64,000 bases of DNA from an uncultured Winogradskyella sp. (GTDB taxonomy: Bacteria; Bacteroidota; Bacteroidia; Flavobacteriales; Flavobacteriaceae). The translations under genes were made by a program, and so were the position numbers. The stretch lies in contig NZ_CANMCZ010000001.1 of NCBI RefSeq assembly GCF_947496485.1, positions 1,759,384-1,823,383 of the forward strand, written 5' to 3'. Below, one piece after another: positions 11,306-25,874 of this stretch (position 1 is the stretch's first letter; each line of letters starts with the position of its first letter). Under the pieces are notes generated by a model, which searched no databases, was not told the DNA's origin, and saw only the letters and a list, made by a program, of their open reading frames with translations.

Positions 11306-12958
11306 TTACTTTTTCTTAGAGATGCTATCTGCCATAATTAAAGCATTATATGCATTAATAACTTTACCAGATTTAGAGAGTTGATTAAAAGGTAGTAGAG
11401 TATCATTTACTCTTACATCATATGTGTACTCTAATCCACTGTCCATGAGGATATGTTTAACTTGAGAAGCTGTAAGGTTTGGATAATGAGAACGTACCAG
11501 CGCTGCTACTCCCGAAGTTACAGCACATGATAAAGAAGTCCCACCATCAATAAGTTCGTACTTTTCTTTAGTTACTGAAGTTGTATATATTTCCACACCA
11601 GGTGCAAATACATCTACATTACTGGAACCGTAATTTGAAAAAGAAGGTATCATATTTTTGTTAATGTAGTAATTGGTGGCACCTACCATTAGGAAATTAT
11701 CAGCAACTTCTTCTCGATTGAAATAATTATTATCATTTGGGTAAACCTCAAAGTATTCTAAATCTTTACCATTGTTTCCAGCTGATTTAACAATTAATAC
11801 ATCATTTTGTTCAGCATATTTGATAGCGTCAAACACCCATTTTTTATATAATGAAAACTCTTTACCAAAACTCATATTAATTACTCTGGCTCCATTATCT
11901 ACTGCATAACGAATTGCTAAAGCTATATCTTTGTCGTGCTCATCACCAAATGCAGAGATAGAAAGAGGCATGATTTTAATATTGTCTGAGATTCCTTTAG
12001 TGCCTATATTATTATCTCTTCTTGCTGCTATTAATCCTGCTATGAGAGTCCCATGGTCAAAAAAACCATTATAAATATTTATTTCAGGGCTACCATAATT
12101 TTTCTCATTTAAACTATCAGAATTATCGCCAATTATTATACGATCATTGTAATCTTTATTCAGTAATTTATCTAATCGTTCATCAGCTTTGAGTTTATAC
12201 AAGTCAATATATTCATCTGTAAATTCATATTTGATTAAAGCTTTCATCCACCTTGTATGTAATTTAATAATAGAATCTTTAGGATGAAGATTTTTTAAAC
12301 TGTCTAAATCTTTAATTGAATAGTTGTCATCAATAAAAAATTTTGATAATGTCTCTTTAGCTAAACTTTTACCACGCTTTTGAATATTTATATAGCTAGT
12401 GTCTTCAATTGCATATTGAAGCCTTTTTTCATATTTATCTCTAGCCCTAAGATAAGTCTTATAAAGCAAAGAATCAGTTATCAAATTATTTTCAAAATCG
12501 CTATCATACTTCTTTAAAATTCTTGTGTATTCGTAATTAACAAATTTTGATGTTTCACCATTTACATTACCGATAAAATTCCATCCATTTATGTCATCTA
12601 TGTAACCGTTGTTATCATCATCTAGACCGTTATTAGAAATTTCTTTCTTATTAATCCAAATGTTTTGTCTTAAATCTTCATGATAGATGTTTAACGGCAT
12701 GTCTATGATAGCAACAATAACCTCTTCTGAGTTATTTCTATTATTAATAATACTATCGTAAGCTTTATCTAAACTTATACCCGGTAGATTGTCTAATTCT
12801 AAATCTTTTAAATGCCAAGATTTCAGATTTTCCTCTGATATTTTTTTTTGTGGAATGGAGTCATTCGTCCCGTTAATATATGATAGATTTAATTTTTTAT
12901 CGCAACAATGTAAACAAGCAAAAAAGATTAAAATTATAAAGAGAAGATTTTTTAACAT
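11306..12958 (-). CDS. S8 (subtilisin-like) serine peptidase, predicted lipoprotein; RiPP-locus protease candidate
   Basis: Lipobox-like N terminus (FFACLHCC); catalytic blocks VAIIDM, DHGTLIAGLIAA, GGTSLSCAVTSGVAAL. Confidence 0.88.
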   Translation of the reverse strand: MLKNLLFIILIFFACLHCCDKKLNLSYINGTNDSIPQKKISEENLKSWHLKDLELDNLPGISLDKAYDSIINNRNNSEEVIVAIIDMPLNIYHEDLRQNIWINKKEISNNGLDDDNNGYIDDINGWNFIGNVNGETSKFVNYEYTRILKKYDSDFENNLITDSLLYKTYLRARDKYEKRLQYAIEDTSYINIQKRGKSLAKETLSKFFIDDNYSIKDLDSLKNLHPKDSIIKLHTRWMKALIKYEFTDEYIDLYKLKADERLDKLLNKDYNDRIIIGDNSDSLNEKNYGSPEINIYNGFFDHGTLIAGLIAARRDNNIGTKGISDNIKIMPLSISAFGDEHDKDIALAIRYAVDNGARVINMSFGKEFSLYKKWVFDAIKYAEQNDVLIVKSAGNNGKDLEYFEVYPNDNNYFNREEVADNFLMVGATNYYINKNMIPSFSNYGSSNVDVFAPGVEIYTTSVTKEKYELIDGGTSLSCAVTSGVAALVRSHYPNLTASQVKHILMDSGLEYTYDVRVNDTLLPFNQLSKSGKVINAYNALIMADSISKKK

Positions 12959-12961
12959 AGA

Positions 12962-12998
12962 TAAAAAAATACCACTAAGATAATAGTTTTCTTAGCGG
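12962..12998 (-). terminator. Hairpin with T-tract between the precursor and the S8 peptidase gene (attenuator/terminator)
   Basis: Minus strand: CCGCTAAGA-loop-TCTTAGTGG (one G-U) then TATTTTTTTA. T-tract ends 4 nt before the S8 start codon. Confidence 0.7.
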
Positions 12999-13024
12999 CA
13001 CTTGAATTAATTTTTGATTAATAC

Positions 13025-13195
13025 TTAATCGCCAGTATCAGTATCGTCATCAGGTGGGCAAATTATAGTGCTTTTTTTTGGTCTTTTCCCTCTAGTGTCT
13101 GTACCATCATCATCACCGAGTCCAGTACCCCCATAAATTACTTTTGGATTACTGAGCTTTGCAATCTTAAAAGATTCTAATTTCAATTTTTTCAT
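13025..13195 (-). CDS. RiPP precursor peptide (56 aa), GG-type leader, class I lanthipeptide-like; absent from the supplied ORF track
   Basis: Translated from the sequence: MKKLKLESFKIAKLSNPKVIYGG/TGLGDDDGTDTRGKRPKKSTIICPPDDDTDTGD*. KLKLxxFKIAKL leader and GG boundary; next to split LanB genes. Confidence 0.85.
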   Translation of the reverse strand: MKKLKLESFKIAKLSNPKVIYGGTGLGDDDGTDTRGKRPKKSTIICPPDDDTDTGD

Positions 13196-13263
13196 AGATA
13201 TAAATATTAAGTTCGAAACTTAAATATATTGGTAATTTTGCATTCAATACAAATAAATCATAT

Positions 13264-13281
13264 CCAAATTCATGAATTTGG
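13264..13281. promoter_or_regulatory. Perfect 18-bp palindrome CCAAATTCATGAATTTGG upstream of the precursor (operator candidate)
   Basis: Exact self-reverse-complement; near-identical copies in the 18.1-kb divergent promoter. Confidence 0.75.
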
Positions 13282-13307
13282 GTATTTGAATATGTTTTAG
13301 GGTAGTA

Positions 13308-14978
13308 TTAGGAATTTTTCAACAATTGTTTTATGAAAAAATTTGGAGAAATATTAGTTTGTCTTTTAAAAGCTCTAGTAAATGATTCTGCTTTTTTAAA
13401 TCCAACTTCATTTGCAATTGCAATTAAAGTATATTTTTTAAAATTTTCATCTGTTTTTAATTTTTCCATAACGTATTCGATTCTAAGGTCATTAATATAA
13501 TGTGTAAAAGATTTGTTTTTATAGTGATTCACAACCTTAGACAGATATCTGACGTTTGTATTAATTTTTTTTGCAAGAACACTAGAAGTTAAGTCCGAAG
13601 ATAGAAATTGATGTTGTTCTTCAAATTCATTTAATTGTTCTAGTATATCACTAATAACCTTGTCGGAAATCTCAAGAGAAGATTTTATTTCATTATCTAA
13701 AACAGGTATCTCTTTATGGGATTGAATTTGTAGGCCATTATTTGTTAACTCTAGGAAACGCTTTTTATAGAGTTTTCTTTTATTGTATTGATAGTATACT
13801 ATTATCAATAAAATAATGGAGACAAAGCCGAGTAGAGATAAATACAATGTTTTATTTTTTTCTTTCTGCTTTATAGCACTTATAATTTTTTCTTTTTCAG
13901 TTATGAGTTTAGGAATATCATATTTTTTTATTAAATTTTTATTTATATAGAGTTCATTAGAATGCAAGGTGCTATCTAACTTAATTAATTGATTAATATA
14001 AACCAATTCTTGTTTAAAGTCCTTTTTGGTTTTATAATGATTTATAAGTATTTCATAAGACTCTCTGATTTTAGGATGCAAATCATAATTTTCTCTAAAA
14101 ATACTATCAACTTTTTTTAGGTTTGATATTTTTTTTATTTCATTTCCAAAAGCTTCATTAATTTTTGCCAAATAATAATAGCTTACAGCCAGATTTGGTT
14201 TATCGTCTATTTGCAATAATATTGGTATGGATTTTTTGATGCTATCTTGGGCAAAGGAATATTGATTTCTAGAGTATTTAACAACACCTTCGTTTAAACG
14301 AAAATAGTTTTTGTAAATATCATCATCAAATGATTTTTTAAATCCAAGATTATTGAAGTGTGAAGCAGAATCTAGCTTCATATCTTCTTGGTATGCAGTT
14401 GATAATGCAAAAAGTGTCGGTAAAATAATATCCTCAAGATTATTTTTTTCTATATAGTAATAATTATCCTTTAGAATTTTTACAGCATTATTGTTTTCCC
14501 CTATTCTAGATTTTAAAAGCCCGATTAGTAGATTACATGCAGCAATATTATCTTTATCGTTATGTTTTTTAGAATAAAATAGTGACTCAAGTACATTATC
14601 CATTGCTTTTTTAAAATCTCTCTTTTCGTAATAAAAATTAGCTTTACTGTAATATGCCAAAGTGGGAAAATATTTATTACTATTTTCTCTTGAAAGGGAA
14701 ATAATACTATCTGCATATACAAGTGCTTTTTCATCATTATAGATATTTACTTTCATGTAATAACCTTCTAAAAGATAATGAGCGTTATTTTCATTTTTTG
14801 ATTTTAATAAAAATGCATTGGTATATATATTTTGTAAATTTTCATCGTCAGTATTCCAATAACCGTTATATAAATCTTTATAGGATTTATCTTTTAAGGA
14901 ATCTACAACTTTTTGTGCTATAACAGGTTGTATATAACTGAATAGGATTATAAAAATAATTGATAATTTTATTTTCAC
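13308..14978 (-). CDS. TPR-containing, membrane-spanning AraC-family HTH regulator
   Basis: Signal/TPR-like N terminus, one TM (LYLSLLGFVSIILLIIVYY), C-terminal AraC HTH (YTLIAIANEVGFKKAESFTRAFKRQTNISPNFF). Confidence 0.88.
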   Translation of the reverse strand: MKIKLSIIFIILFSYIQPVIAQKVVDSLKDKSYKDLYNGYWNTDDENLQNIYTNAFLLKSKNENNAHYLLEGYYMKVNIYNDEKALVYADSIISLSRENSNKYFPTLAYYSKANFYYEKRDFKKAMDNVLESLFYSKKHNDKDNIAACNLLIGLLKSRIGENNNAVKILKDNYYYIEKNNLEDIILPTLFALSTAYQEDMKLDSASHFNNLGFKKSFDDDIYKNYFRLNEGVVKYSRNQYSFAQDSIKKSIPILLQIDDKPNLAVSYYYLAKINEAFGNEIKKISNLKKVDSIFRENYDLHPKIRESYEILINHYKTKKDFKQELVYINQLIKLDSTLHSNELYINKNLIKKYDIPKLITEKEKIISAIKQKEKNKTLYLSLLGFVSIILLIIVYYQYNKRKLYKKRFLELTNNGLQIQSHKEIPVLDNEIKSSLEISDKVISDILEQLNEFEEQHQFLSSDLTSSVLAKKINTNVRYLSKVVNHYKNKSFTHYINDLRIEYVMEKLKTDENFKKYTLIAIANEVGFKKAESFTRAFKRQTNISPNFFIKQLLKNS

Positions 14979-15829
14979 TTTAATGAAGGTTTAAATAAAT
15001 CAGTCTTATATTCTTTATATAAAACATCATAAATTAAGAATTCGTATAATCTTTGGTTAGAATTAAAGTATCTGTTAATAGTCATGTGTATGATACTACT
15101 CGTAAGATTATTTAAACTAACTTCTACATTACCACTATTATAAAGCTCGTTAATTTTTGTAAAAGTCTGATTAGTATTTTCAGAATAAGTTTTAAGTAAC
15201 TGCAATAAATTAGTTTTTCTAAAGCTTTCTTTTTGTGAAAGAATTTTTCTGCTTCTTTCACTAAGATCTTTCATAGTTATTTTGTTTGCGTTGAATTCTG
15301 ACTTAAAAGCATTTCTACCTTTTTCAGCAAATTTAAATTTGCTCTCTTTTGAAAATTTAAACTGAGATAATATTATAGAAATAAGTTTTACAATAAAGAT
15401 AATACTCTCTTCTTCTGTAAGCTGTTTTTCCTTTGCTTTTAAAATTGTTTCACTATCCCAGAAGAAAAGATTTTCAATATAAGTAATTGTAGATGAGCCA
15501 TAACGTTCAATTTCTCGTTTGTATTGGTGCAATTGAACATCCCAAATAAATCCTGAATTTAAGTGAGGTATTAGTAATTTTTTTAACTCAGAAATAATAA
15601 TACCAGTATGTGTTTCGCAGATAAGTTTAAATCTAATTCTAAGATGAAAATCAGGATCATTATAACGAATAAAAAACCATGATGAAATAATATTATTATC
15701 TAACTGTTTTTTAGTAAATGGTACAATAGCATCAATTAATATATCATCTGCTACATTTACACCACAGTATAGTTTATAATACATCCATTGGTCCCCTATT
15801 ACAAAATTTCTTTTAATACTATTTTCCAC
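14975..15829 (-). CDS. Thiopeptide-type bacteriocin biosynthesis domain protein (LanB C-terminal elimination half)
   Basis: DQWMYYKLYCGVNVADDILIDAI...SSWFFIRYNDPDFHLRIRFK is typical of the SpaB_C/elimination domain. Overlaps the upstream LanB N-half. Confidence 0.88.
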   Translation of the reverse strand: MENSIKRNFVIGDQWMYYKLYCGVNVADDILIDAIVPFTKKQLDNNIISSWFFIRYNDPDFHLRIRFKLICETHTGIIISELKKLLIPHLNSGFIWDVQLHQYKREIERYGSSTITYIENLFFWDSETILKAKEKQLTEEESIIFIVKLISIILSQFKFSKESKFKFAEKGRNAFKSEFNANKITMKDLSERSRKILSQKESFRKTNLLQLLKTYSENTNQTFTKINELYNSGNVEVSLNNLTSSIIHMTINRYFNSNQRLYEFLIYDVLYKEYKTDLFKPSLK

Positions 15830-18044
15830 CTTGTATCTTGTTTAATTTTTCTTCATTATATAATGAAACAATAAATTGATTACAAAATGAATTACTATTT
15901 TGTTTAACAACACTTTCTTTGTCAAATAAAAACTCTTTTAGTTTGAATAGCTTTAAATTTTTAATAGTTTTAAATAGCATTCTTATTGAGGTAGCATTCT
16001 TCATGTTAATTAATAATAAGTTATCACCTTCTACTAGTTGTACTAATTCTGGCATTTGTATAGCAGTTCTCCATATTCTCATTTTTTCCACCAAATCGTC
16101 ATTATCTAGTTGAAAGTACTTAACAATATTTTCTGTCTTAATATTCCATTGCGCTTTAGAAAATATTACAGAATTATGTTCTACTCTTGGTAAGAAAGAT
16201 AAATTCTCTAAAATAGGATGCCATTGAAATCCAATACCATTTCGCTTATCTTGATATTGCATATCGCAAAGGAAATAATAAATAGGTAACGCATTTGCGT
16301 AGTTATGAGCATTGGTTAAGCGAGGTAAAATTTCTATATCTAGACGTTTTGAGCGTAAAACAATTTTATTGTTTTTTACTGAAATCATTATATCACTTAT
16401 AGGAATCTGATTTTTATATGGCAATCCCGATTTTCCTAAGAATGGAATTTCATAATCTCTAACTGATGGACGCCTTAATATGTTTCCTGTTCTCGATTGA
16501 GGCAGATGTATAATTTCTGAGAGTACCTTATTTGGATTCATTTTCTTTTCAACTTGAGTAATTTCTTCAACTTGTTTGAAAATTTTAGCATGCCCATGAC
16601 TAAATCTTGCTAAAATATTCGCCGCGCTAGAACCTCCAAGCCAATTAAAGACTAATCTTTCTACATTATCAATAATAACAACCTCAATCATTGAAGCCAT
16701 AGTGTCTGGTAAATCATTCCATTCGCATCCTAAATCTTTAAAATCATTTTCGTTTAACTTTAAAGTATACTTTTGATTACTTAGACAATTAGTAATTTTC
16801 TCAAGAAGAATAGAATCAACTGTTGTCCATTTGATATTTTTGCTTTGTGTGCTTTTATTAGGTAAATGTATATTTTCCAAAAGAGGATTATTATCATCTA
16901 GGGAATGAGAATATCCGATACCTATTTCAGTATCTAATACCTCATAAAGCGGTAACTCTCTTGTTTCATATCTTTTTTTAAAAGCTATTTTAAAGTTTTC
17001 TATTTTCGAGTTTTTTTGAAATAGAGTTATTTTATTTAGAATTATCATACTTTGTCTAATAGACTTTATATGATTTTTATTGAGCGTGTTTTTATAAGCT
17101 GAAGCAAATAAATCAACTTGTAGAATATGTTTTTTTATATGTTTTGTTTCTTTAAACTCATTTTCTATCCAATTATAAAATTCATAGTAATTATTTGGCT
17201 TTTTAGTATCTAATATTTTAATTTTATTATTTAACTCTTTAATTGATTTAAGGTGCTTTTTAGGAATAGATAATAACTCTAATTGTTCTATAAGAAATGA
17301 TAGATTATTAGAATTGGTGATAATTATTTGAAGTTCAGATACTAAAATTTGTTTTTCTACAAGCTCATTTATAAAACTTAATGCCTCTGTTTTATCAATA
17401 TCTTTAGAAATTAATAATGAAGCGAAATCATCCAATGTTTTTCCTCTTATAGCTTCACTTAAAATTATTTCCAAATAATCGGAATATAAAGCCCCATCCA
17501 AATAATAAATTCTATTATTATCATTATATATGTAACCTATATAACGATATTGATTACCAACTTTATATAAACTAGAATTTACAACATATTGAATTTTATT
17601 TTTAACCCCATTAAGTTTAGATATTCTATCAATTAATGCGGATAAGAAGGACATGTCTAACCGAGTAAAAGTTTTATATGAACTCAAACCTTTTAATTCT
17701 ATTTCTGTATCATTAGAAAATGAGCCTTCAACACAATTTGCAAATAACCCAAAAGGGGTTGCTCTAGTCGTAATTCTAGTTAAGTACTTTAAAATTGAAA
17801 GCTTAATCTGCTCAATCTTTTTGCTATTTTCAATTTTATTATTCTGCCAATAACCAAACTGTTTTACAAGTTCAGGAGATGCTAAGGTTAGTGCTTTTAT
17901 AAAGAAATCATCCTCAAATAGCTTTTTAAAGCATGCATCGGTAATTTCATAACTTTCAGTTATGCTATTATATAATTGTACTGAACGTGTTGGAGTTCTT
18001 AGGCAATAGAATGGAAATGCTTTATAAGGACTTTTAAATTTCAA
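15819..18044 (-). CDS. Lantibiotic dehydratase LanB N-terminal (glutamylation) half
   Basis: RTPTRSVQLYNSI, TRATPFGLFANC, LPQSRTGNILRRPSVRDYEIPFLGKSG motifs of LanB N-domains. Confidence 0.9.
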   Translation of the reverse strand: MKFKSPYKAFPFYCLRTPTRSVQLYNSITESYEITDACFKKLFEDDFFIKALTLASPELVKQFGYWQNNKIENSKKIEQIKLSILKYLTRITTRATPFGLFANCVEGSFSNDTEIELKGLSSYKTFTRLDMSFLSALIDRISKLNGVKNKIQYVVNSSLYKVGNQYRYIGYIYNDNNRIYYLDGALYSDYLEIILSEAIRGKTLDDFASLLISKDIDKTEALSFINELVEKQILVSELQIIITNSNNLSFLIEQLELLSIPKKHLKSIKELNNKIKILDTKKPNNYYEFYNWIENEFKETKHIKKHILQVDLFASAYKNTLNKNHIKSIRQSMIILNKITLFQKNSKIENFKIAFKKRYETRELPLYEVLDTEIGIGYSHSLDDNNPLLENIHLPNKSTQSKNIKWTTVDSILLEKITNCLSNQKYTLKLNENDFKDLGCEWNDLPDTMASMIEVVIIDNVERLVFNWLGGSSAANILARFSHGHAKIFKQVEEITQVEKKMNPNKVLSEIIHLPQSRTGNILRRPSVRDYEIPFLGKSGLPYKNQIPISDIMISVKNNKIVLRSKRLDIEILPRLTNAHNYANALPIYYFLCDMQYQDKRNGIGFQWHPILENLSFLPRVEHNSVIFSKAQWNIKTENIVKYFQLDNDDLVEKMRIWRTAIQMPELVQLVEGDNLLLINMKNATSIRMLFKTIKNLKLFKLKEFLFDKESVVKQNSNSFCNQFIVSLYNEEKLNKIQGGK

Positions 18045-18257: not shown

Positions 18258-18443
18258 ATGGAAAGTTTAAAAAAATTTGAGAATTTATCCTTAGCAAATA
18301 CAAAAGATATATTTGGAGGAAAGGAGCTTAAGACAGAACAGAGAAATGATGCAAATGAAGTGTTGTATACAGACTCTCATCATGACAATGATAATGATGG
18401 TAAATGGAGTTGCGGTGATACTTTTACACTGACTAAAGTTTAA
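18258..18443 (+). CDS. RiPP precursor 1 (61 aa) with FGG leader end and EF-hand-like loop
   Basis: MESLKKFENLSLANTKDIFGG leader; core contains DNDNDGKWSCGD. Confidence 0.83.
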   Translation: MESLKKFENLSLANTKDIFGGKELKTEQRNDANEVLYTDSHHDNDNDGKWSCGDTFTLTKV

Positions 18444-18463
18444 TAATCTAATAAATTAATAAA

Positions 18464-18676
18464 ATGAAAAGCATAGAAAATTTTAAGGATGAGCAATTTG
18501 TTTGCTCAAACATATTTGGTTCATGGGATGGTATACATGGAACACCTGGTGGTACTTTTCAAGGTATGGAATACTCATCAGATGTATTTATTGATAAGAA
18601 CGGAGATGGCAAATGGGGCAGTGGTGAAAGTGTAATCATGCATTTTTGTGATCCTCCTACCGTACAACAAGGATAA
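18464..18676 (+). CDS. RiPP precursor 2 (70 aa) with EF-hand-like loop
   Basis: MKSIENFKDEQFVCSNIFGSWDG leader-like start; core contains DKNGDGKWGSGE. Tandem with precursor 1. Confidence 0.78.
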   Translation: MKSIENFKDEQFVCSNIFGSWDGIHGTPGGTFQGMEYSSDVFIDKNGDGKWGSGESVIMHFCDPPTVQQG

Positions 18677-18692
18677 AACTTATAGAATAAGA

Positions 18693-18747
18693 ATAAGCAT
18701 TGTTAAAATGTTTAAGGCTACAGCAATGCTTATACTATTGATTTTTT
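18693..18747 (+). terminator. Hairpin plus T-tract after precursors 1 and 2
   Basis: Perfect 10-bp arms ATAAGCATTG/CAATGCTTAT with a 21-nt loop, followed by ACTATTGATTTTTT. Confidence 0.6.
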
Positions 18748-18768
18748 AAAACAATAAGGATTGAAATT

Positions 18769-19248
18769 ATGCATAGGTTAATTATAGTTTTTTCATTGGT
18801 TTTTAACTTCTGTGTTATCAACTCTCAAGAAAAAGTAGAAAAAAAAATACTTCCTGATATCTTAATATTAGAATTAAAATCTATAACTCAAAGTGACCAA
18901 AAATATCGCTCAATAATTGTTGAAAACAGAGAAAGTCTTTCTAAAAAAGATAAAGATAGTTTATGGGTCTTACAAGATGAAATTGATATAAATAATACTA
19001 TAAGAGTTATTGAAATAATTAAAGAATATGGATATATATCAAGTAGTAATTCAAACTCAAATTTTCCCATGCATATAATATTAATGCATACACCGAATAA
19101 TTTAAAAAGTGAAGTTTTAGAATTAATTGAAAAAGAGAATAGAGCTGGGAGAATAGTTAAAAGTTCTTATGGTCTTATTAAGTGGCATTTAGAAGGAAGA
19201 AAAGAAGTCAAGTTAGATTATTTCAAAAAAAATGATTCTACTAATTAG
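18769..19248 (+). CDS. Secreted protein, DUF6624-like; paralogue of 21765-22376; possible immunity/accessory protein
   Basis: N-terminal signal peptide; shares DQKYR...KDSLW.LQ.....NT...IEI...GRI.K..Y..I.WH..GRKE with the 21.8-kb gene. Confidence 0.65.
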   Translation: MHRLIIVFSLVFNFCVINSQEKVEKKILPDILILELKSITQSDQKYRSIIVENRESLSKKDKDSLWVLQDEIDINNTIRVIEIIKEYGYISSSNSNSNFPMHIILMHTPNNLKSEVLELIEKENRAGRIVKSSYGLIKWHLEGRKEVKLDYFKKNDSTN

Positions 19249-20194
19249 CAGTAAATATGATATAACATCACTAAATGTTTCTAGATGGCTAAGCAAACTA
19301 AAAGCGGACTTCTTTAGTTTAAATACTGAAGACTTTAATTCTCTAAACTCTTTCTCATTATTAGATAATGATATTAATGTCAAAATAAATGGAGTTGATT
19401 TTTCTGATGTAGATACAGTTTGGCATAGAAGAGGAAGGTTAAGACATATTCCAAAAGAATTAAATGGATTAGGCAGTTATAGTGAGTATCTAAAAAAGGA
19501 AGAAGATGCTCTTATAAAATCTATAGAGCTTTATTTAAAGAGTTCAACAAACTATATTGGTTCATATATAAAAGAGGTCGAAAATTATAAACTTTACAAT
19601 TTAATTAAAGCAAAAGAAGCTGGTCTAAAAATACCTAAAACTTTGGTGACAACTTCTAAATCTGAATTGTTGGATTTTATAAATAATAGAACCGCAATAT
19701 CAAAAGATATAAGATATTCTGTAAACATAAGAACTCAAAGTAAGTATATATCTTCAATAGGAACTTTTATTGTTCAAAGAGATGACCTTGAATTATTAGA
19801 AGACAATTTTGCGCCAATTCTCGTACAAGAATTAATTCAGAAAGAGTTTGAAATCAGGGTTTTTTTCTTTGACAATACTTTCTATGCAATGGCTATTTTT
19901 TCTCAAGATGATGAAAAAACTAAATTAGACTACAGGAATTATAATGAAGAAAAACAGAATAGATGTGTTCCTTTTATTCTGCCAAACCGAATCAAAAATA
20001 AATTAATTGCTTTCGCGAAAAAAGTAAACATTAGAACAGGTTCTATAGACATTATTTATACAACTTCAGGGGAGTATATTTTTTTAGAAGTTAATCCAAT
20101 GGGACAACTTGATTGGGTGTCAAAAAACTGCAACTACCATATAGAAAAGAACATAGCTAATAATCTATTTAAAAGTAGAAATGAAAGGAATTAA
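19232..20194 (+). CDS. gwsG: Grasp-with-spasm system ATP-grasp peptide maturase
   Basis: ATP-grasp fold sequence (VWHRRGRLRHIP, PILVQELIQKEFEIRVFFFDN, FLEVNPMGQLDW) directly upstream of the SPASM partner. Confidence 0.88.
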   Translation: MILLISSKYDITSLNVSRWLSKLKADFFSLNTEDFNSLNSFSLLDNDINVKINGVDFSDVDTVWHRRGRLRHIPKELNGLGSYSEYLKKEEDALIKSIELYLKSSTNYIGSYIKEVENYKLYNLIKAKEAGLKIPKTLVTTSKSELLDFINNRTAISKDIRYSVNIRTQSKYISSIGTFIVQRDDLELLEDNFAPILVQELIQKEFEIRVFFFDNTFYAMAIFSQDDEKTKLDYRNYNEEKQNRCVPFILPNRIKNKLIAFAKKVNIRTGSIDIIYTTSGEYIFLEVNPMGQLDWVSKNCNYHIEKNIANNLFKSRNERN

Positions 20195-20372
20195 ACAAAA
20201 ATTACCTCTTACGATTCAGAAGGCGAATTCTGAAGACTATATAAATGCTTCGAGTGGAAAGATGAAAGGCACAGAAAAATTTATTTCTATAAAAAAGTTC
20301 AATTCGGAAGTAAAACCTCAAGGTTTTTACAAGCCAATATCTAAAATGATTTCAATTAATGGTACAAAATAA
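20181..20372 (+). CDS. Small basic protein (63 aa) overlapping both gwsG and gwsS; function unknown
   Basis: 14-nt overlaps at both ends, indicating a translationally coupled cistron; Lys-rich. Confidence 0.62.
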   Translation: MKGIKQKLPLTIQKANSEDYINASSGKMKGTEKFISIKKFNSEVKPQGFYKPISKMISINGTK

Positions 20373-21435
20373 AACTTTTAAACTCTTTTCAAATTGCATT
20401 CCGGTTAAAGGAGCTAAAAGAAGTACGATATGCGATCTTCAGAGAAATGAGGTTAAATTAATTCCGAATGATTTAGCTGAAATTTTGATCAAATATGAAG
20501 GAAAAGCTATTGGTGAAATAAAAGTAATTTATCAAAATAAATACGATTCTATTATTGATGAGTATTTTGAGTTTCTGTTAGAAAATGAGTTTATATTCTT
20601 TACAAATCAACCAGAATTATTTCCCAAAATGAGTTTAGATTGGGAAGATCCATCAGTTATAAATAATGCCATTATCGATAGAGATTCAAATTCTAATTAC
20701 GATTTATATAATATACTTGATCAGTTAGACGAGTTGAACTGTAGGCATATTGAATTACGATACTTTAATTCAATTGAATTAACCGAAATCTTAGATATAT
20801 TGAAATATCTTGAAAATGCCCAATCCACAATTATTTCAGTTGATGTTACTATGCCTTATAATGAATCACTTAGAAATTTAAATGATGTTATCATTAAAAA
20901 TAAGCGATTAGCATCATTTAAAATATTTAATTCTTTAGAAGATACTTTTACACCACCTCTTAAGGAAAATATGGGTTTCATAATTTACACTAAAAAACAA
21001 ATTAAGAACAGCTCGTGCTGTGGTCTTATATCTAAAGATTTTTTTGTAGTAAACACGCCTCTTTTCACAGAAAGTGTAAATCATAATAGTTGCCTAAACC
21101 ATAAGGTTGGAATTGATGTAGATGGTAATATCAAAAATTGTCCTTCAATGAAGAAAAGTTTTGGTAATGTTTTGTCACAAACATTGGAAGAATGCTTAAA
21201 TAAGAAGACTTTTAAAAAGTATTGGAAAGTAAAAAAAGACAATATAAATATTTGCAAAGATTGCGAATTCAGGCATATATGTACCGATTGCAGGGCGTTT
21301 ATAGAAGATCCTAACGATATATATTCCAAACCATTAAAATGTGGTTACAATCCTTATACAAACGAATGGAAAGATTGGAGTACTAATAAGCTAAATATAA
21401 AAACAATTCAATCATATCATTTAGATGGAAAATAA
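20359..21435 (+). CDS. gwsS: Grasp-with-spasm system SPASM domain peptide maturase
   Basis: FKLFSNCIPVKGAKRSTICDLQRNEVKLIPNDL N terminus; C-terminal SPASM-type Cys set (GIDVDGNIKNCPSM...CKDCEFRHICTDCRAF...CGYNPYT). No CxxxCxxC. Confidence 0.88.
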   Translation: MVQNKTFKLFSNCIPVKGAKRSTICDLQRNEVKLIPNDLAEILIKYEGKAIGEIKVIYQNKYDSIIDEYFEFLLENEFIFFTNQPELFPKMSLDWEDPSVINNAIIDRDSNSNYDLYNILDQLDELNCRHIELRYFNSIELTEILDILKYLENAQSTIISVDVTMPYNESLRNLNDVIIKNKRLASFKIFNSLEDTFTPPLKENMGFIIYTKKQIKNSSCCGLISKDFFVVNTPLFTESVNHNSCLNHKVGIDVDGNIKNCPSMKKSFGNVLSQTLEECLNKKTFKKYWKVKKDNINICKDCEFRHICTDCRAFIEDPNDIYSKPLKCGYNPYTNEWKDWSTNKLNIKTIQSYHLDGK

Positions 21436-21496
21436 TACTAAAGGTGTAAGCTGAAAAACCTGAATAGAGTAAGCAATAAAATAAATTATTTAAATT

Positions 21497-21700
21497 ATGA
21501 AAAAATTAAGTCAAGTTAATTTCGAAGAAATGAGATTGTCTAACTTACATCAAGTAAGAGGTGGAGATGGTGGTACTACCTATACTGGTAACCAAGGTAG
21601 TTCAGGTACTGATTGTTATTGTGATAATGACGGCGACGGTAAATTGAGTAAAGGTGATGACGTATTACTAGATAATGGTCAATGGATTGTAAAAAAATAG
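21497..21700 (+). CDS. RiPP precursor 3 (67 aa) with RGG leader end and EF-hand loop
   Basis: MKKLSQVNFEEMRLSNLHQVRGG leader; core contains CYCDNDGDGKLSKGDD. Confidence 0.85.
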   Translation: MKKLSQVNFEEMRLSNLHQVRGGDGGTTYTGNQGSSGTDCYCDNDGDGKLSKGDDVLLDNGQWIVKK

Positions 21701-21764: not shown

Positions 21765-22376
21765 ATGAAATATTATAGTTTTTTTTTAATGATTTTTTTT
21801 ATTGCATCAAGTTGTAAATCTAACAAGTATGAGGATAATGAAGTTTTGTGCGAAGTATTAGTCAATATATACGATGATGATCAAAAATATAGAGGAAAGG
21901 AAAGTGAGCTAGTCGATCCTTTTTTTAAAATATTAGATTCAATAATGATCTCTGAAGGAATAACTAAGAAAGAATATATAAAATTTGAAAAAAACAAACA
22001 ATTAGTCTATGGAAAAATTGCCAGAGGAGTTGCAGACAAAAGAAACGAAGTATCTAAAAAAGTGAAGGATTCTTTATGGGATTTGCAGAGTAGCTTGGAT
22101 GAAAAGAACACTAAAATACTAATAGAAATAGTTGAGGAAAGAGGTTTTCCTGATATAAAAAAGTTAGAATGTAAGGGATATGCTTCTCCGTTTTTAATTT
22201 TTGTACATTCACCAGAAGAATATTGGGGTGAAATAAAAAATATTCTTGACCAAGAGATTAAAAGTGACAGAATAACAAAAGGCGACTACGATTATATAAT
22301 GTGGCATATTAATGGTCGAAAAGAAGGGCCTTTATCTCCTATACCTATTGAAGATATCCAAATTATAGAAGATTAA
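21765..22376 (+). CDS. Lipoprotein, DUF6624-like, paralogue of 18769-19248 (track start 21741 lies inside the hairpin)
   Basis: ATG at 21765 gives MKYYSFFLMIFFIASSCKS, a lipoprotein signal; homologous C-terminal half to the 18.8-kb protein. Confidence 0.68.
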   Translation: MKYYSFFLMIFFIASSCKSNKYEDNEVLCEVLVNIYDDDQKYRGKESELVDPFFKILDSIMISEGITKKEYIKFEKNKQLVYGKIARGVADKRNEVSKKVKDSLWDLQSSLDEKNTKILIEIVEERGFPDIKKLECKGYASPFLIFVHSPEEYWGEIKNILDQEIKSDRITKGDYDYIMWHINGRKEGPLSPIPIEDIQIIED

Positions 22377-22384
22377 TATATTTT

Positions 22385-24577
22385 GTGTTGAAAAAATTCC
22401 CATTCTACAAGCAACGAGATAACAAAGACTGTGGTCCAACCTGTCTAAAAATAATAACCAAATATTTTAACAAAAGCATTGCTATACAGCAGCTCAGAGA
22501 ATTAAGTGAAACTACAAGAGCAGGTAGCAGTTTACTAGGTTTGAGTGAAGCAGCAGAAAAGATAGGCTTTAGGAGTCTTGGCGTGAAACTTACTTTAAAA
22601 CGCTTATTGGAGGCACCATTACCATGCATTGTACATTGGAATAACAACCACTACACAGTACTTTACAAAATAAAGAAAGAAGTCTTTTATATTTCAGACC
22701 CAGCTCACGGTTTGTTAAAATACAATAAAAAAGAATTTTTAAATCATTGGATTGGTCACAACGCTTCAGACCAAACAGAAGAAGGTATAGCATTATTATT
22801 AGAACCAACAGCAAAATTCTATAATTCAGATTTTGATAAAGGAAAAACAGAATTTGGATTTAAATTTTTATCAAAATACATCTTTAAATACAAGCGCTTT
22901 TTATGGCAACTAATAATTGGTCTAATAGCTGCAAGTTTACTACAGTTAATATTTCCCTTTTTAACCCAAAGTGTAGTAGATGTTGGTATTAAAAACCAAG
23001 ACATCCATTTTATATATTTAATCTTATTTGCACAATTAGCTTTATTTATTGGACGAACAGCTATAGAGGTTATTAGGAGTTGGATTTTATTACATTTAAG
23101 TACACGTATTAATATATCTTTAGTTTCAGATTTCTTTATAAAGCTAATGAATTTGCCAATAGCCTTCTTTGATACGCGCATGACTGGGGACATTTTGCAA
23201 CGTATCAATGATCATAAGCGTATTGAGCGAATTTTAACTACATCGTCACTCAACGTATTGTTTTCAATGGTGAATTTGTTGGTGTTTAGTTTTGTATTGG
23301 CATATTATAACCTAATGCTCTTTGGCATATTTCTTTTAGGTAGCTTTCTCTATTTTTTATGGATCATTATTTTTCTCAAAAAACGAAGAGATTTAGATTA
23401 TAAACGTTTTTCAGAAGTGAGCCAAGAACAAAGCAAAGTAATTGAACTCATTAATGGTATGCAAGAAATAAAATTGCATAATGCAGAAAAGCAAAAAAGG
23501 TGGTCTTGGGAGTTTGTGCAAGCACGTTTATTTAGAGTATCTATTGAGGGTTTAGCTTTAGAACAATACCAAAGTGTAGGTTCTGGTTTCATTAATGAGG
23601 TTAAAAATATTTTAATCACAGTATTGTCTGCTAAATTGGTTATAGATGGTGACATCACTTTAGGTATGATGTTAGCTATTAGCTATATTGTTGGGCAGTT
23701 AAACTCACCAATATCGCAACTTATTAATTTTATAAGAGAAGTACAGGATGCTAAAATATCTTTAGATCGTTTATCGGAAATTCATAATAAAGAAGACGAA
23801 GAACAGCAAGATGTTGAGAAGCTTATGGATATTCCATTAGATGCTAACTTAGAATTATCAAAAGTATCTTTTAGATATGTTGGGTCAGATCAAATGGTAT
23901 TAAAAGATCTGGATTTAACAATACCTGCTAAAAAAGTTACGGCTATTGTTGGTGTAAGTGGAAGTGGAAAAACCACTTTAATGAAATTGTTACTAAAGTT
24001 TTATGATCCAAACAACGGGCAAATAAAAATTGGTCATCACGATTTGCAAAATGTTTCACAAAAAACATGGAGACATCAGTGTGGAGTCGTAATGCAAGAA
24101 GGTTATATATTTAATGATACCATTGCAAATAATATAGCGGTTGGAGAAGATTATGTGGATAAAAAGAAATTAGCGCACGCCGTTGATGTTGCAAATATTA
24201 AAGAGTTTATTGAATCGTTACCATTATCATATAATACCAAAATAGGTATGGAGGGGATTGGTGTCAGCACAGGGCAAAAACAACGTTTGTTAATCGCTAG
24301 ATCAGTTTATAAAAATCCTAATTTCTTATTTTTTGATGAAGCGACCTCTGCATTAGATGCTAATAATGAAAAGGTAATTATGGAAAAACTAAATACCTTT
24401 TTTGAAGATAAAACTGTAGTTGTTATCGCACATAGATTAAGTACTGTGAAAAATGCACATCAGATTGTGGTATTAGATAAAGGGAAGATTGTAGAAGTTG
24501 GCAATCATGAAGCTTTAGTAAAACAAAAAGGAAACTACTTTAATTTGGTTAAGAATCAGTTAGAACTCGGTAAATAG
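22385..24577 (+). CDS. Peptidase C39 domain-containing ABC transporter (leader-cleaving RiPP exporter)
   Basis: C39 residues DCGPTCL, HWNNNHYTV, ISDPAHG; ABC motifs GVSGSGKTTL, VSTGQKQRLLIAR, FLFFDEATSALD. Confidence 0.95.
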   Translation: MLKKFPFYKQRDNKDCGPTCLKIITKYFNKSIAIQQLRELSETTRAGSSLLGLSEAAEKIGFRSLGVKLTLKRLLEAPLPCIVHWNNNHYTVLYKIKKEVFYISDPAHGLLKYNKKEFLNHWIGHNASDQTEEGIALLLEPTAKFYNSDFDKGKTEFGFKFLSKYIFKYKRFLWQLIIGLIAASLLQLIFPFLTQSVVDVGIKNQDIHFIYLILFAQLALFIGRTAIEVIRSWILLHLSTRINISLVSDFFIKLMNLPIAFFDTRMTGDILQRINDHKRIERILTTSSLNVLFSMVNLLVFSFVLAYYNLMLFGIFLLGSFLYFLWIIIFLKKRRDLDYKRFSEVSQEQSKVIELINGMQEIKLHNAEKQKRWSWEFVQARLFRVSIEGLALEQYQSVGSGFINEVKNILITVLSAKLVIDGDITLGMMLAISYIVGQLNSPISQLINFIREVQDAKISLDRLSEIHNKEDEEQQDVEKLMDIPLDANLELSKVSFRYVGSDQMVLKDLDLTIPAKKVTAIVGVSGSGKTTLMKLLLKFYDPNNGQIKIGHHDLQNVSQKTWRHQCGVVMQEGYIFNDTIANNIAVGEDYVDKKKLAHAVDVANIKEFIESLPLSYNTKIGMEGIGVSTGQKQRLLIARSVYKNPNFLFFDEATSALDANNEKVIMEKLNTFFEDKTVVVIAHRLSTVKNAHQIVVLDKGKIVEVGNHEALVKQKGNYFNLVKNQLELGK

Positions 24578-24578
24578 T

Positions 24579-25874
24579 ATGCCAGATAATAATTTAGAAA
24601 ATATAGAACTTCGAAGTGAAGAAGTACAAGAAATACTTACCAAAGTACCACATTGGATGATACGTTGGGGAAATGTCTTGTTTTTGTCTTTAATATTGAT
24701 GCTGCTTTTTTTGTCTTGGTTTGTGAAATATCCAGATATTATTCTTTCTGAAGCAGTTATAACAACTCAAATTCCACCACAAAAAGAGTATGCTAAAATA
24801 ACAGGTAAGTTAAATGCGATTTTAGTAGACGACAACCAAAGTGTTGAGAGTAATCAACCATTGGCAATATTAGAAAATACTGCCAATTATAGAGATGTTT
24901 ATAAATTAAAATCTGTCATTGATACTATAACTGTTAACAGTAAATCATTTCAATTTCCTGTAGATAGTTTGCCAATATTATTTTTAGGTGATATAGAATC
25001 GCAATATGCGTTGTTTGAAAACAACTATAATCAATATTTACTCAATAAAGAGTTACAACCTTTTTCCAATGAAGCACTAGCTAATAAATATTCAATTTCA
25101 GAACTGAATAGACGTTTACAAAGTCTAAAGCGACAACGCGATATTAACAAGACAGAATTAGAGTATGCTCAAATTGGACTAAATAGGCAAAAAAAATTAT
25201 TTAATAAAGGAGTTATTTCTGCTCAAGATTATGAAAACACTCAATTGCAATATGCAAGAGAAGAACGTAATTATAAAAATTTCGAATCATCTATTTCGCA
25301 AATACGAGAAGCCATAAGCAGAGCGCATATGACTTCAAAAGGCACTGAAATAAATAGAACAAAGGAAGAGATGACTTTACTTAAAAACGTTATTCAATCC
25401 TTTAATCAACTAAAAAATGCTATTAAAGACTGGGAAAGAATTTATGTTTTAAAATCAGATATAAATGGCAACGTGTCTTTTTTAAACTTCTGGAATAATA
25501 ATCAAACTGTAAATCAAGGTGATTTAGTGTTTACGATTATTCCAATTGAGAACTCATCATTTATAGCAAAACTTAAAACACCTGCCCAAAATTCTGGAAA
25601 AATTAAAGTTGGGCAAAACGTAAATGTAAAACTAGAAAATTATCCTGATACTGAGTTTGGAGTATTGAATGGCAAAGTGAAAAATATTTCACTCATTCCA
25701 GATAAAGAAGGCTTATACTTTATCGACGTGGAATTACCTAAAAAGCTAATTACTTCTTACAATAAAAACATAGAATTTAAACAAGAAATGAGAGGTTCTG
25801 CAGAAATTATAACAGAAGACTTAAGACTCATTGAACGTTTCTTTTATCAATTTAAGGAAATTGTAAAACGCTAA
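24579..25874 (+). CDS. HlyD family secretion/adaptor protein, partner of the C39 ABC exporter
   Basis: N-terminal TM, coiled coil, HlyD-type barrel region; directly downstream of the exporter. Confidence 0.92.
   Translation: MPDNNLENIELRSEEVQEILTKVPHWMIRWGNVLFLSLILMLLFLSWFVKYPDIILSEAVITTQIPPQKEYAKITGKLNAILVDDNQSVESNQPLAILENTANYRDVYKLKSVIDTITVNSKSFQFPVDSLPILFLGDIESQYALFENNYNQYLLNKELQPFSNEALANKYSISELNRRLQSLKRQRDINKTELEYAQIGLNRQKKLFNKGVISAQDYENTQLQYAREERNYKNFESSISQIREAISRAHMTSKGTEINRTKEEMTLLKNVIQSFNQLKNAIKDWERIYVLKSDINGNVSFLNFWNNNQTVNQGDLVFTIIPIENSSFIAKLKTPAQNSGKIKVGQNVNVKLENYPDTEFGVLNGKVKNISLIPDKEGLYFIDVELPKKLITSYNKNIEFKQEMRGSAEIITEDLRLIERFFYQFKEIVKR

What the first reader, a model, noticed from the sequence alone, without database searches (positions are those of the whole stretch)
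18384..21658. All three plus-strand precursors contain EF-hand Ca2+-loop motifs in the core
Seen: DNDNDGKWSCGD (18384-18419), DKNGDGKWGSGE (18593-18628), DNDGDGKLSKGD (21623-21658). Each fits the 12-residue EF-loop pattern: D at 1, D/N at 3, D at 5, G at 6, hydrophobic at 8, D/E at 12. The rest of the three peptides diverges, so the loop is the conserved core. Inference: the modified product may bind Ca2+ (or a lanthanide), or the loop may pre-organise Asp carboxylates and Ser/Thr/Lys for ATP-grasp macrocyclisation. A RiPP family built on an EF-loop scaffold would be novel.
Basis: partly seen in the sequence, partly recalled or inferred. Interest (0 to 1): 0.9.

Follow-up and report, generated by a model that had tools for sequence, protein, structure and literature searches.

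The report
Graspetide precursors with calcium-loop cores
A bacterial gene cluster for small ring-closed peptides encodes three precursors whose cores each carry a calmodulin-like calcium-binding loop, and relatives in at least eleven other genomes keep this loop, so the secreted peptides probably bind calcium, which no described member of this peptide class that we could find is known to do.

Summary
All three plus-strand precursors carry a full 12-residue EF-type loop at the stated coordinates; they are the only 3 of 149 small ORFs in the window that do. The locus is a grasp-with-spasm graspetide cluster (GwsG TIGR04192, GwsS TIGR04193, C39 exporter, HlyD). Across 88 gws loci the loop is not family-wide: 80 lack it (0 strict hits in 5230 small ORFs). 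It occurs only within one well-supported GwsG subclade of Flavobacteriaceae and Chryseobacterium. I collected 26 intact loop precursors from 12 genomes. Constraint follows metal-ligand logic: D1 26/26; position 3 N19/D7; position 5 D14/N12; G6 25/26; position 12 E16/D10. A profile of these peptides finds EF-hand proteins first in the PDB, aligned on the loop. Asn at positions 3 and 5 cannot be an ATP-grasp acyl donor, so these residues look made for metal, not cross-linking. The likely ring residue is an invariant Asp four residues before the loop plus an upstream Thr/Ser. Best model: GwsG closes a lactone beside the loop; after GG cleavage and export the loop binds Ca2+. Metal binding and ring connectivity are inferred, not shown.

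The parts
18258..18443 (+). precursor 1 (61 aa), GG-type leader, EF loop
   Evidence: ORF; orthologue in L019 keeps 10/12 loop residues, differing only at positions 7 and 10
18384..18419 (+). EF-type loop DNDNDGKWSCGD
   Evidence: translation
18372..18374 (+). codon of the invariant Asp at -4 from the loop of precursor 1 (TD-SHH-D); likely ring acceptor (inferred)
   Evidence: D at -4 in 26/26 precursors
18464..18676 (+). precursor 2 (70 aa), EF loop
   Evidence: ORF; orthologue in L019
18593..18628 (+). EF-type loop DKNGDGKWGSGE
   Evidence: translation
18769..19248 (+). secreted 'cluster 23' protein, divergent relative of DUF6624 (copy a)
   Evidence: 36% to copy b; iterative profile joins it to DUF6624 members
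19232..20194 (+). gwsG, ATP-grasp peptide maturase
   Evidence: TIGR04192 220 bits, just below the 230 cut-off, full length; relatives AMdnB, MdnC, CdnC in the PDB; K158, E207, R209, D233, R235, D273, N288, G291 invariant in 89 rows, E286 99%
20181..20372 (+). small LPL-type helper between gwsG and gwsS (KLPLT motif)
   Evidence: 40% match in the same place in L019; LPL-like motif in 45 of 74 loci with a small ORF at this place; described in PMC8939145
20359..21435 (+). gwsS, SPASM-domain maturase (SPASM Cys kept, no CxxxCxxC)
   Evidence: TIGR04193 360 bits, cut-off 175; no CxxxCxxC in 91/91
21497..21700 (+). precursor 3 (67 aa), RGG leader, EF loop
   Evidence: ORF; orthologue in L019 keeps the ligand pattern while D/N swap at positions 3 and 5
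21623..21658 (+). EF-type loop DNDGDGKLSKGD
   Evidence: translation
21765..22376 (+). 'cluster 23' lipoprotein (copy b), paired with precursor 3
   Evidence: same pairing in L019 and in the orphan pair of L119
22385..24577 (+). C39 peptidase/ABC exporter
   Evidence: NCBIfam peptide cleavage/export ABC family hits
24579..25874 (+). HlyD-type membrane fusion protein
   Evidence: position next to the exporter and matches beside exporters in other loci; no family search was run on it

Best explanation
This is a grasp-with-spasm graspetide cluster of a subclade whose precursors carry an EF-type calcium loop as a fixed module of the core. Shown by sequence: three precursors with intact loops, a complete maturation and export set, and co-inheritance of the loop with one GwsG subclade. 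Inferred: in the cytosol, where free Ca2+ is low, the loop is empty and open; GwsG joins the conserved upstream Thr/Ser to the invariant Asp at -4 as a macrolactone just ahead of the loop; the C39 exporter cuts after the GG-type leader and exports the peptide; outside, in millimolar Ca2+, the loop binds Ca2+ between two short strands and folds the ring-bearing peptide into its active shape. Metal ligands would be D1, D/N3, D/N5, the position 7 backbone, position 9 (directly or through water) and D/E12. The biological target is unknown; by analogy with known graspetides a protease inhibitor or an agent against competitors is likeliest.
For: The strict loop pattern hits only the three precursors in the window, 15 ORFs in 8 loop loci, and 0 of 5230 small ORFs in 80 other gws loci. 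In 26 intact precursors from 12 genomes, conservation falls on D1, [DN]3, [DN]5, G6 and [DE]12, with D/N/G/S at 9 in 25 of 26, while 2 and 10 are free. Profile A1 recovers EF-hand proteins (EhCaBP, calmodulin, troponin C, dockerin) at the top of the PDB, aligned on the loop, best E 1.5e-6. The loop label needs 2 changes on the GwsG tree against 7.8 shuffled, 0 of 500 shuffles as low. Three loci found by precursor profile alone fall in the same GwsG subclade, 98/98. D-4 is invariant in precursors of gws type but absent from two orphan loop peptides without gws genes beside them. Dx[DN]xDG loops bind Ca2+ in at least twelve families, flanked by strands or helices, and a loop placed between two strands of CD2 created a Ca2+ site (PMC3123361). 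A 17-residue peptide derived from calmodulin binds Tb3+ with KD 57 nM on its own (PMC7656248).
Against: No binding data. The AlphaFold model of precursor 2 is poor (mean pLDDT 52; loop blocks 62-65), so the strand-loop-strand shape is only a hint. Single EF loops without flanking helices usually bind Ca2+ weakly (own knowledge); only 4 of 26 fit the recalled PROSITE EF-hand pattern because position 8 is often Trp and 13 is not hydrophobic. One precursor (L072a) has Lys at position 6. Pfam EF-hand models hit only a few members, weakly (best E 0.012). The Thr-Asp(-4) ring rests on conservation and on the link proposed for related precursors in PMC8939145, not on chemistry; the Thr/Ser spacing is variable.
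Confidence: 0.55

Rival explanations
1. The loop acids are the ATP-grasp substrates: GwsG links loop Asp/Glu (D1 and D/E12 above all) to Thr/Ser/Lys, and the EF-like look is a by-product of acceptor spacing, as in other graspetides with repeated acidic motifs.
For: Graspetide cores are defined by conserved acids and Ser/Thr/Lys; D1 and D/E12 are always acidic; GwsG keeps its conserved residues.
Against: Asn at position 3 in 19/26 and at position 5 in 12/26; Gly6 in 25/26 and the D/N/G/S set at position 9 have no role in lactone chemistry; no conserved nucleophile inside the loop (Lys7 13/26); the profile matches EF-hand loops.
Confidence: 0.2
2. The motif is a maturase docking or beta-turn element: a D-x-x-aromatic-x-D...DG hairpin recognised by GwsG or GwsS, with no metal in the product. 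The wider family has shorter D...YxDG elements in the same place.
For: Non-loop precursors of related loci keep [TKR]D-x-Y-D or TD..Y elements; L036 has a half loop YDEDGHLLGTE.
Against: A plain turn or docking site does not explain joint constraint at 1, 3, 5, 6 and 12 with free positions 2 and 10; two orphan peptides keep the loop without any gws enzyme beside them.
Confidence: 0.15
3. Ca2+ binding serves export or folding only (as RTX repeats do), or regulates maturation by closing the core when Ca2+ is present; the final active fragment may lack the metal.
For: C39/HlyD type export; loop placed in the C-terminal half of every precursor.
Against: Other gws precursors use the same kind of exporter without a loop.
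Confidence: 0.1

Closest known systems
Grasp-with-spasm graspetides (Makarova et al. 2022, PMC8939145, branch 5; TIGR04192/TIGR04193; RODEO group 14 of PMC13097080 may correspond)
   Same: GwsG, LPL-type protein, GwsS, cluster 23 protein, C39 ABC exporter, GG-type precursors, conserved Thr/Ser plus Asp/Glu proposed to be linked
   Different: Those precursors are described as highly diverse; no calcium or EF-loop core is mentioned in the text. Here a 12-residue EF-type loop is a core module of one GwsG subclade.
Dx[DN]xDG calcium loops outside helix-loop-helix (Rigden et al. 2011, PMC3123361), including dockerin; SdrD_B-type beta-flanked loops (own knowledge)
   Same: ligand pattern 1/3/5/12 with Gly6; dockerin and calmodulin among the profile's PDB matches
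   Different: Found in folded proteins; here in a peptide core of about 40 residues made for ATP-grasp maturation. Nearly half of the loops have Asn at 5, as some calmodulin loops do (own knowledge).
Lanthanide-binding tags (engineered from a calmodulin loop; PMC7656248)
   Same: single short EF-derived peptide
   Different: Engineered and linear; here natural and probably ring-closed. Ln3+ use is untested.
Microviridin/chryseoviridin graspetides (MdnB/MdnC/CdnC)
   Same: homologous ATP-grasp ligases
   Different: Different core motif; no SPASM protein; no metal loop (own knowledge).

Membership tests
Grasp-with-spasm graspetide cluster | GwsG ATP-grasp maturase (TIGR04192) | tested here: met
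   220 bits over 1-318/318 positions, best family by 78 bits, but 10 bits under the curated cut-off of 230; conserved residues kept
Grasp-with-spasm graspetide cluster | GwsS SPASM protein (TIGR04193) | tested here: met
   360 bits, cut-off 175
Grasp-with-spasm graspetide cluster | GG-type precursors and C39 exporter next to the maturases | tested here: met
   precursor 2 has GSWDG rather than GG
Grasp-with-spasm graspetide cluster | Ester or amide side-chain links in the product | not testable with these tools
   needs mass spectrometry
EF-type / Dx[DN]xDG calcium loop | ligand pattern D1, D/N3, D/N5, G6, D/E12 conserved among homologues | tested here: met
   26/26, 26/26, 26/26, 25/26, 26/26; the members were in part gathered by this pattern, but those came from a profile search
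EF-type / Dx[DN]xDG calcium loop | sequence-profile similarity to proven Ca2+-binding loops | tested here: met
   profile A1 against PDB: EF-hand proteins first, E 1.5e-6, aligned on the loop
Canonical EF-hand domain | helix-loop-helix with hydrophobic position 13 and Pfam EF-hand score | tested here: not met
   4/26 fit the recalled PROSITE pattern; Pfam EF-hand hits weak and few; low-confidence model shows strands, not helices
Canonical radical SAM/SPASM maturase (for GwsS) | CxxxCxxC motif for the SAM-binding cluster | tested here: not met
   absent in 91 of 91 GwsS; SPASM cysteines kept
Calcium-binding product | measured metal binding | not testable with these tools
   needs ITC or Tb3+ luminescence

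The most novel reading that the evidence does not exclude
The matured products are natural metallopeptides: single EF loops stiffened by a GwsG-made lactone so that they bind Ca2+ (or Ln3+) tightly, serving as secreted metal chelators or metal-gated effectors. That would be the first ribosomal natural product family built on an EF loop.
Probability: 0.25. Interest if true: 0.85.

Novelty: new variant of a known kind. Interest (0 to 1): 0.62.

Why it matters
If the loop binds metal in the mature peptide, graspetides gain a metal-dependent branch. Ring closure by an ATP-grasp enzyme next to an EF loop would be a natural solution to a known design problem: making a single short EF loop bind tightly without its helices. 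The conserved split between a ring residue (D-4) and loop ligands makes a clear, testable prediction and gives a sequence handle for finding more of these peptides.

Tried and rejected
Loop as a gws-wide feature: rejected, 80 of 88 loci lack it. Chance acidic runs: rejected by shuffles and background. L073 precursors (DSDADGPGGSTD) set aside: they lack the hydrophobic position 8 and sit near a LanB-like gene. Minus-strand precursor candidate 13025-13195: acid-rich but no EF loop. AlphaFold of the precursor gave a poor model and that of GwsS only a moderate one; Foldseek of GwsS gave no significant match, best SuiB at E 0.1. Literature searches for a calcium- or EF-hand-type graspetide found none.

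Full report
What is there. The window holds a grasp-with-spasm (gws) graspetide cluster on the + strand: two tandem precursors (18258-18443, 18464-18676), a secreted 'cluster 23' protein (18769-19248), gwsG (19232-20194), a small LPL-type gene (20181-20372), gwsS (20359-21435), a third precursor (21497-21700), a second cluster 23 lipoprotein (21765-22376), a C39 peptidase/ABC exporter (22385-24577) and an HlyD-type protein (24579-25874). GwsG scores 220 bits with TIGR04192 (cut-off 230) and GwsS 360 bits with TIGR04193 (cut-off 175). The architecture matches branch 5 of Makarova et al. 2022 (PMC8939145).

The observation. The strict loop pattern occurs in exactly those three of 149 small ORFs and in none of 44 large ORFs of the window; shuffled cores give it with probability 5e-4, 9e-5 and 2e-3.

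Is it family-wide? I fetched 87 further gws loci from Bacteroidota. With the window, 8 loci have loop precursors and 80 do not; the 80 contain 5230 small ORFs and no strict match. On a tree of 89 GwsG proteins the loop label needs 2 changes, against 7.8 for shuffled labels, and 0 of 500 shuffles do as well. All loop loci lie in one supported subclade that also holds six loop-free loci. A profile of the loop precursors (A1), used alone to search 175 Chryseobacterium genomes, brought in three new loop loci, and their GwsG proteins fall in the same subclade (98/98). Two origins, or one origin with losses, are both possible.

What is conserved. Anchored on the loop, 26 intact precursors from 12 genomes show D at -4 in 26/26, D1 26/26, position 3 N19/D7, position 5 D14/N12, G6 25/26, D/E at 12 in 26/26, D/N/G/S at 9 in 25/26, and free positions 2 and 10. 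Some of these were gathered with a pattern that fixes 1, 3, 5 and 12, so those counts are partly circular; the members found by profile and the invariant D-4, which was in no pattern, are not. The orthologous pair for precursor 3 (window and L019) differs at 7 of 12 loop positions, including D/N swaps at 3 and 5, yet keeps the ligand pattern. This looks like selection on ligand chemistry rather than on a fixed sequence. Asn can coordinate Ca2+ but cannot be activated by an ATP-grasp enzyme, so positions 3 and 5 are not obligatory cross-link sites. D1 and D/E12 remain formally possible.

Outside evidence that the loop is an EF loop. A profile of the whole precursors finds EF-hand proteins first among 177,635 distinct PDB sequences (best E 1.5e-6), aligned on profile positions 43-63, followed by calmodulins, troponin C and a dockerin. 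With only 6 sequences the matches are weak but include dockerins and calmodulin. Pfam EF-hand models reach only a few members, weakly, and most members fail the recalled PROSITE EF-hand pattern at positions 8 and 13. So these are EF loops without the EF-hand domain. That context is known to work: Dx[DN]xDG loops bind Ca2+ in at least twelve families with strands or helices on either side, and a loop placed between two strands of CD2 created a Ca2+ site (PMC3123361). AlphaFold puts the loop of precursor 2 between two strands, but at low confidence (mean pLDDT 52, loop region 62-65).

Where is the ring? GwsG keeps its conserved residues (K158, E207, R209, D233, R235, D273, N288 invariant; E286 99%) and is related to MdnB, MdnC and CdnC. 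Makarova et al. propose that a conserved Thr/Ser and an Asp/Glu are linked in precursors of this branch (PMC8939145). In the loop precursors the matching pair would be a Thr/Ser soon after the leader and the invariant Asp at -4. Related loop-free precursors keep a similar pair, for example T...KDLYD in L017 and T...ITD in L003 and L006. Two loop peptides outside any gws locus (L143 and L128) keep the loop but lack D-4. This small comparison fits D-4 as the enzyme's residue and the loop as the metal's. It is inference.

Other anatomy. The cluster 23 proteins form a family present in most gws loci and, by iterative profile, are divergent relatives of DUF6624. Genome G003 has a lone pair of loop precursor and cluster 23 protein near transposase-like genes (L119), mirroring precursor 3 and copy b here. 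Genome G120 has a decayed version of the locus: gwsG is cut and joined to an HlyD-type end, one loop precursor is broken and another has lost position 12. GwsS lacks the CxxxCxxC motif in all 91 members while keeping SPASM cysteines, so calling it a radical SAM enzyme is doubtful.

Verdict. The cluster class is known; an EF loop as its core module was not found in the literature available here. Binding, ring position and biological role are untested.

Noticed in passing
20359-21435 and 91 GwsS proteins: GwsS keeps its SPASM cysteines but has no CxxxCxxC SAM-cluster motif in any member, although the family is often called a radical SAM maturase; it may be a degenerate rSAM acting as a binding or electron-transfer partner.
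   Followed up: partly
11306-18044 (-): A class I lanthipeptide-like system lies divergently next to the gws cluster: split LanB (15819-18044 and 14975-15829), a regulator-like protein (13308-14978), an acid-rich precursor candidate (13025-13195) and a subtilisin-like protease (11306-12958). L019 has a LanB gene in the same place.
   Followed up: partly
18769-19248 and 21765-22376: Two homologous 'cluster 23' proteins (36% identical), each just downstream of a precursor; divergent DUF6624 relatives. They could be enzymes or immunity proteins.
   Followed up: partly
L119:8768-9621: Orphan pair of EF-loop precursor and cluster 23 lipoprotein near transposase-like genes, with no gwsS found in that (80% complete) genome.
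   Followed up: partly
L092 / L120: Decayed EF-type gws locus: gwsG fragment fused by deletion to an HlyD-type C-terminus, loop precursors broken.
   Followed up: partly
L143:1456-1671 (-) and L128:1501-1716 (+): Small peptides with a GG- or GNG-type leader and an EF-type loop (DANNNGEWDAGE, DVNGNGVFDFGD) among unrelated genes, with no gws enzymes beside them and no Asp at -4.
   Followed up: partly
L019:5099-5931 (-): The nearest relative of the locus carries a fourth EF-loop precursor followed by another cluster 23 protein, a pair that the window lacks.
   Followed up: no
L144:1408-2583 (-): A larger protein in a distant genome of the phylum has two loops of the same D-x-N-x-N-G type, probably in a beta-sandwich protein.
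   Followed up: no
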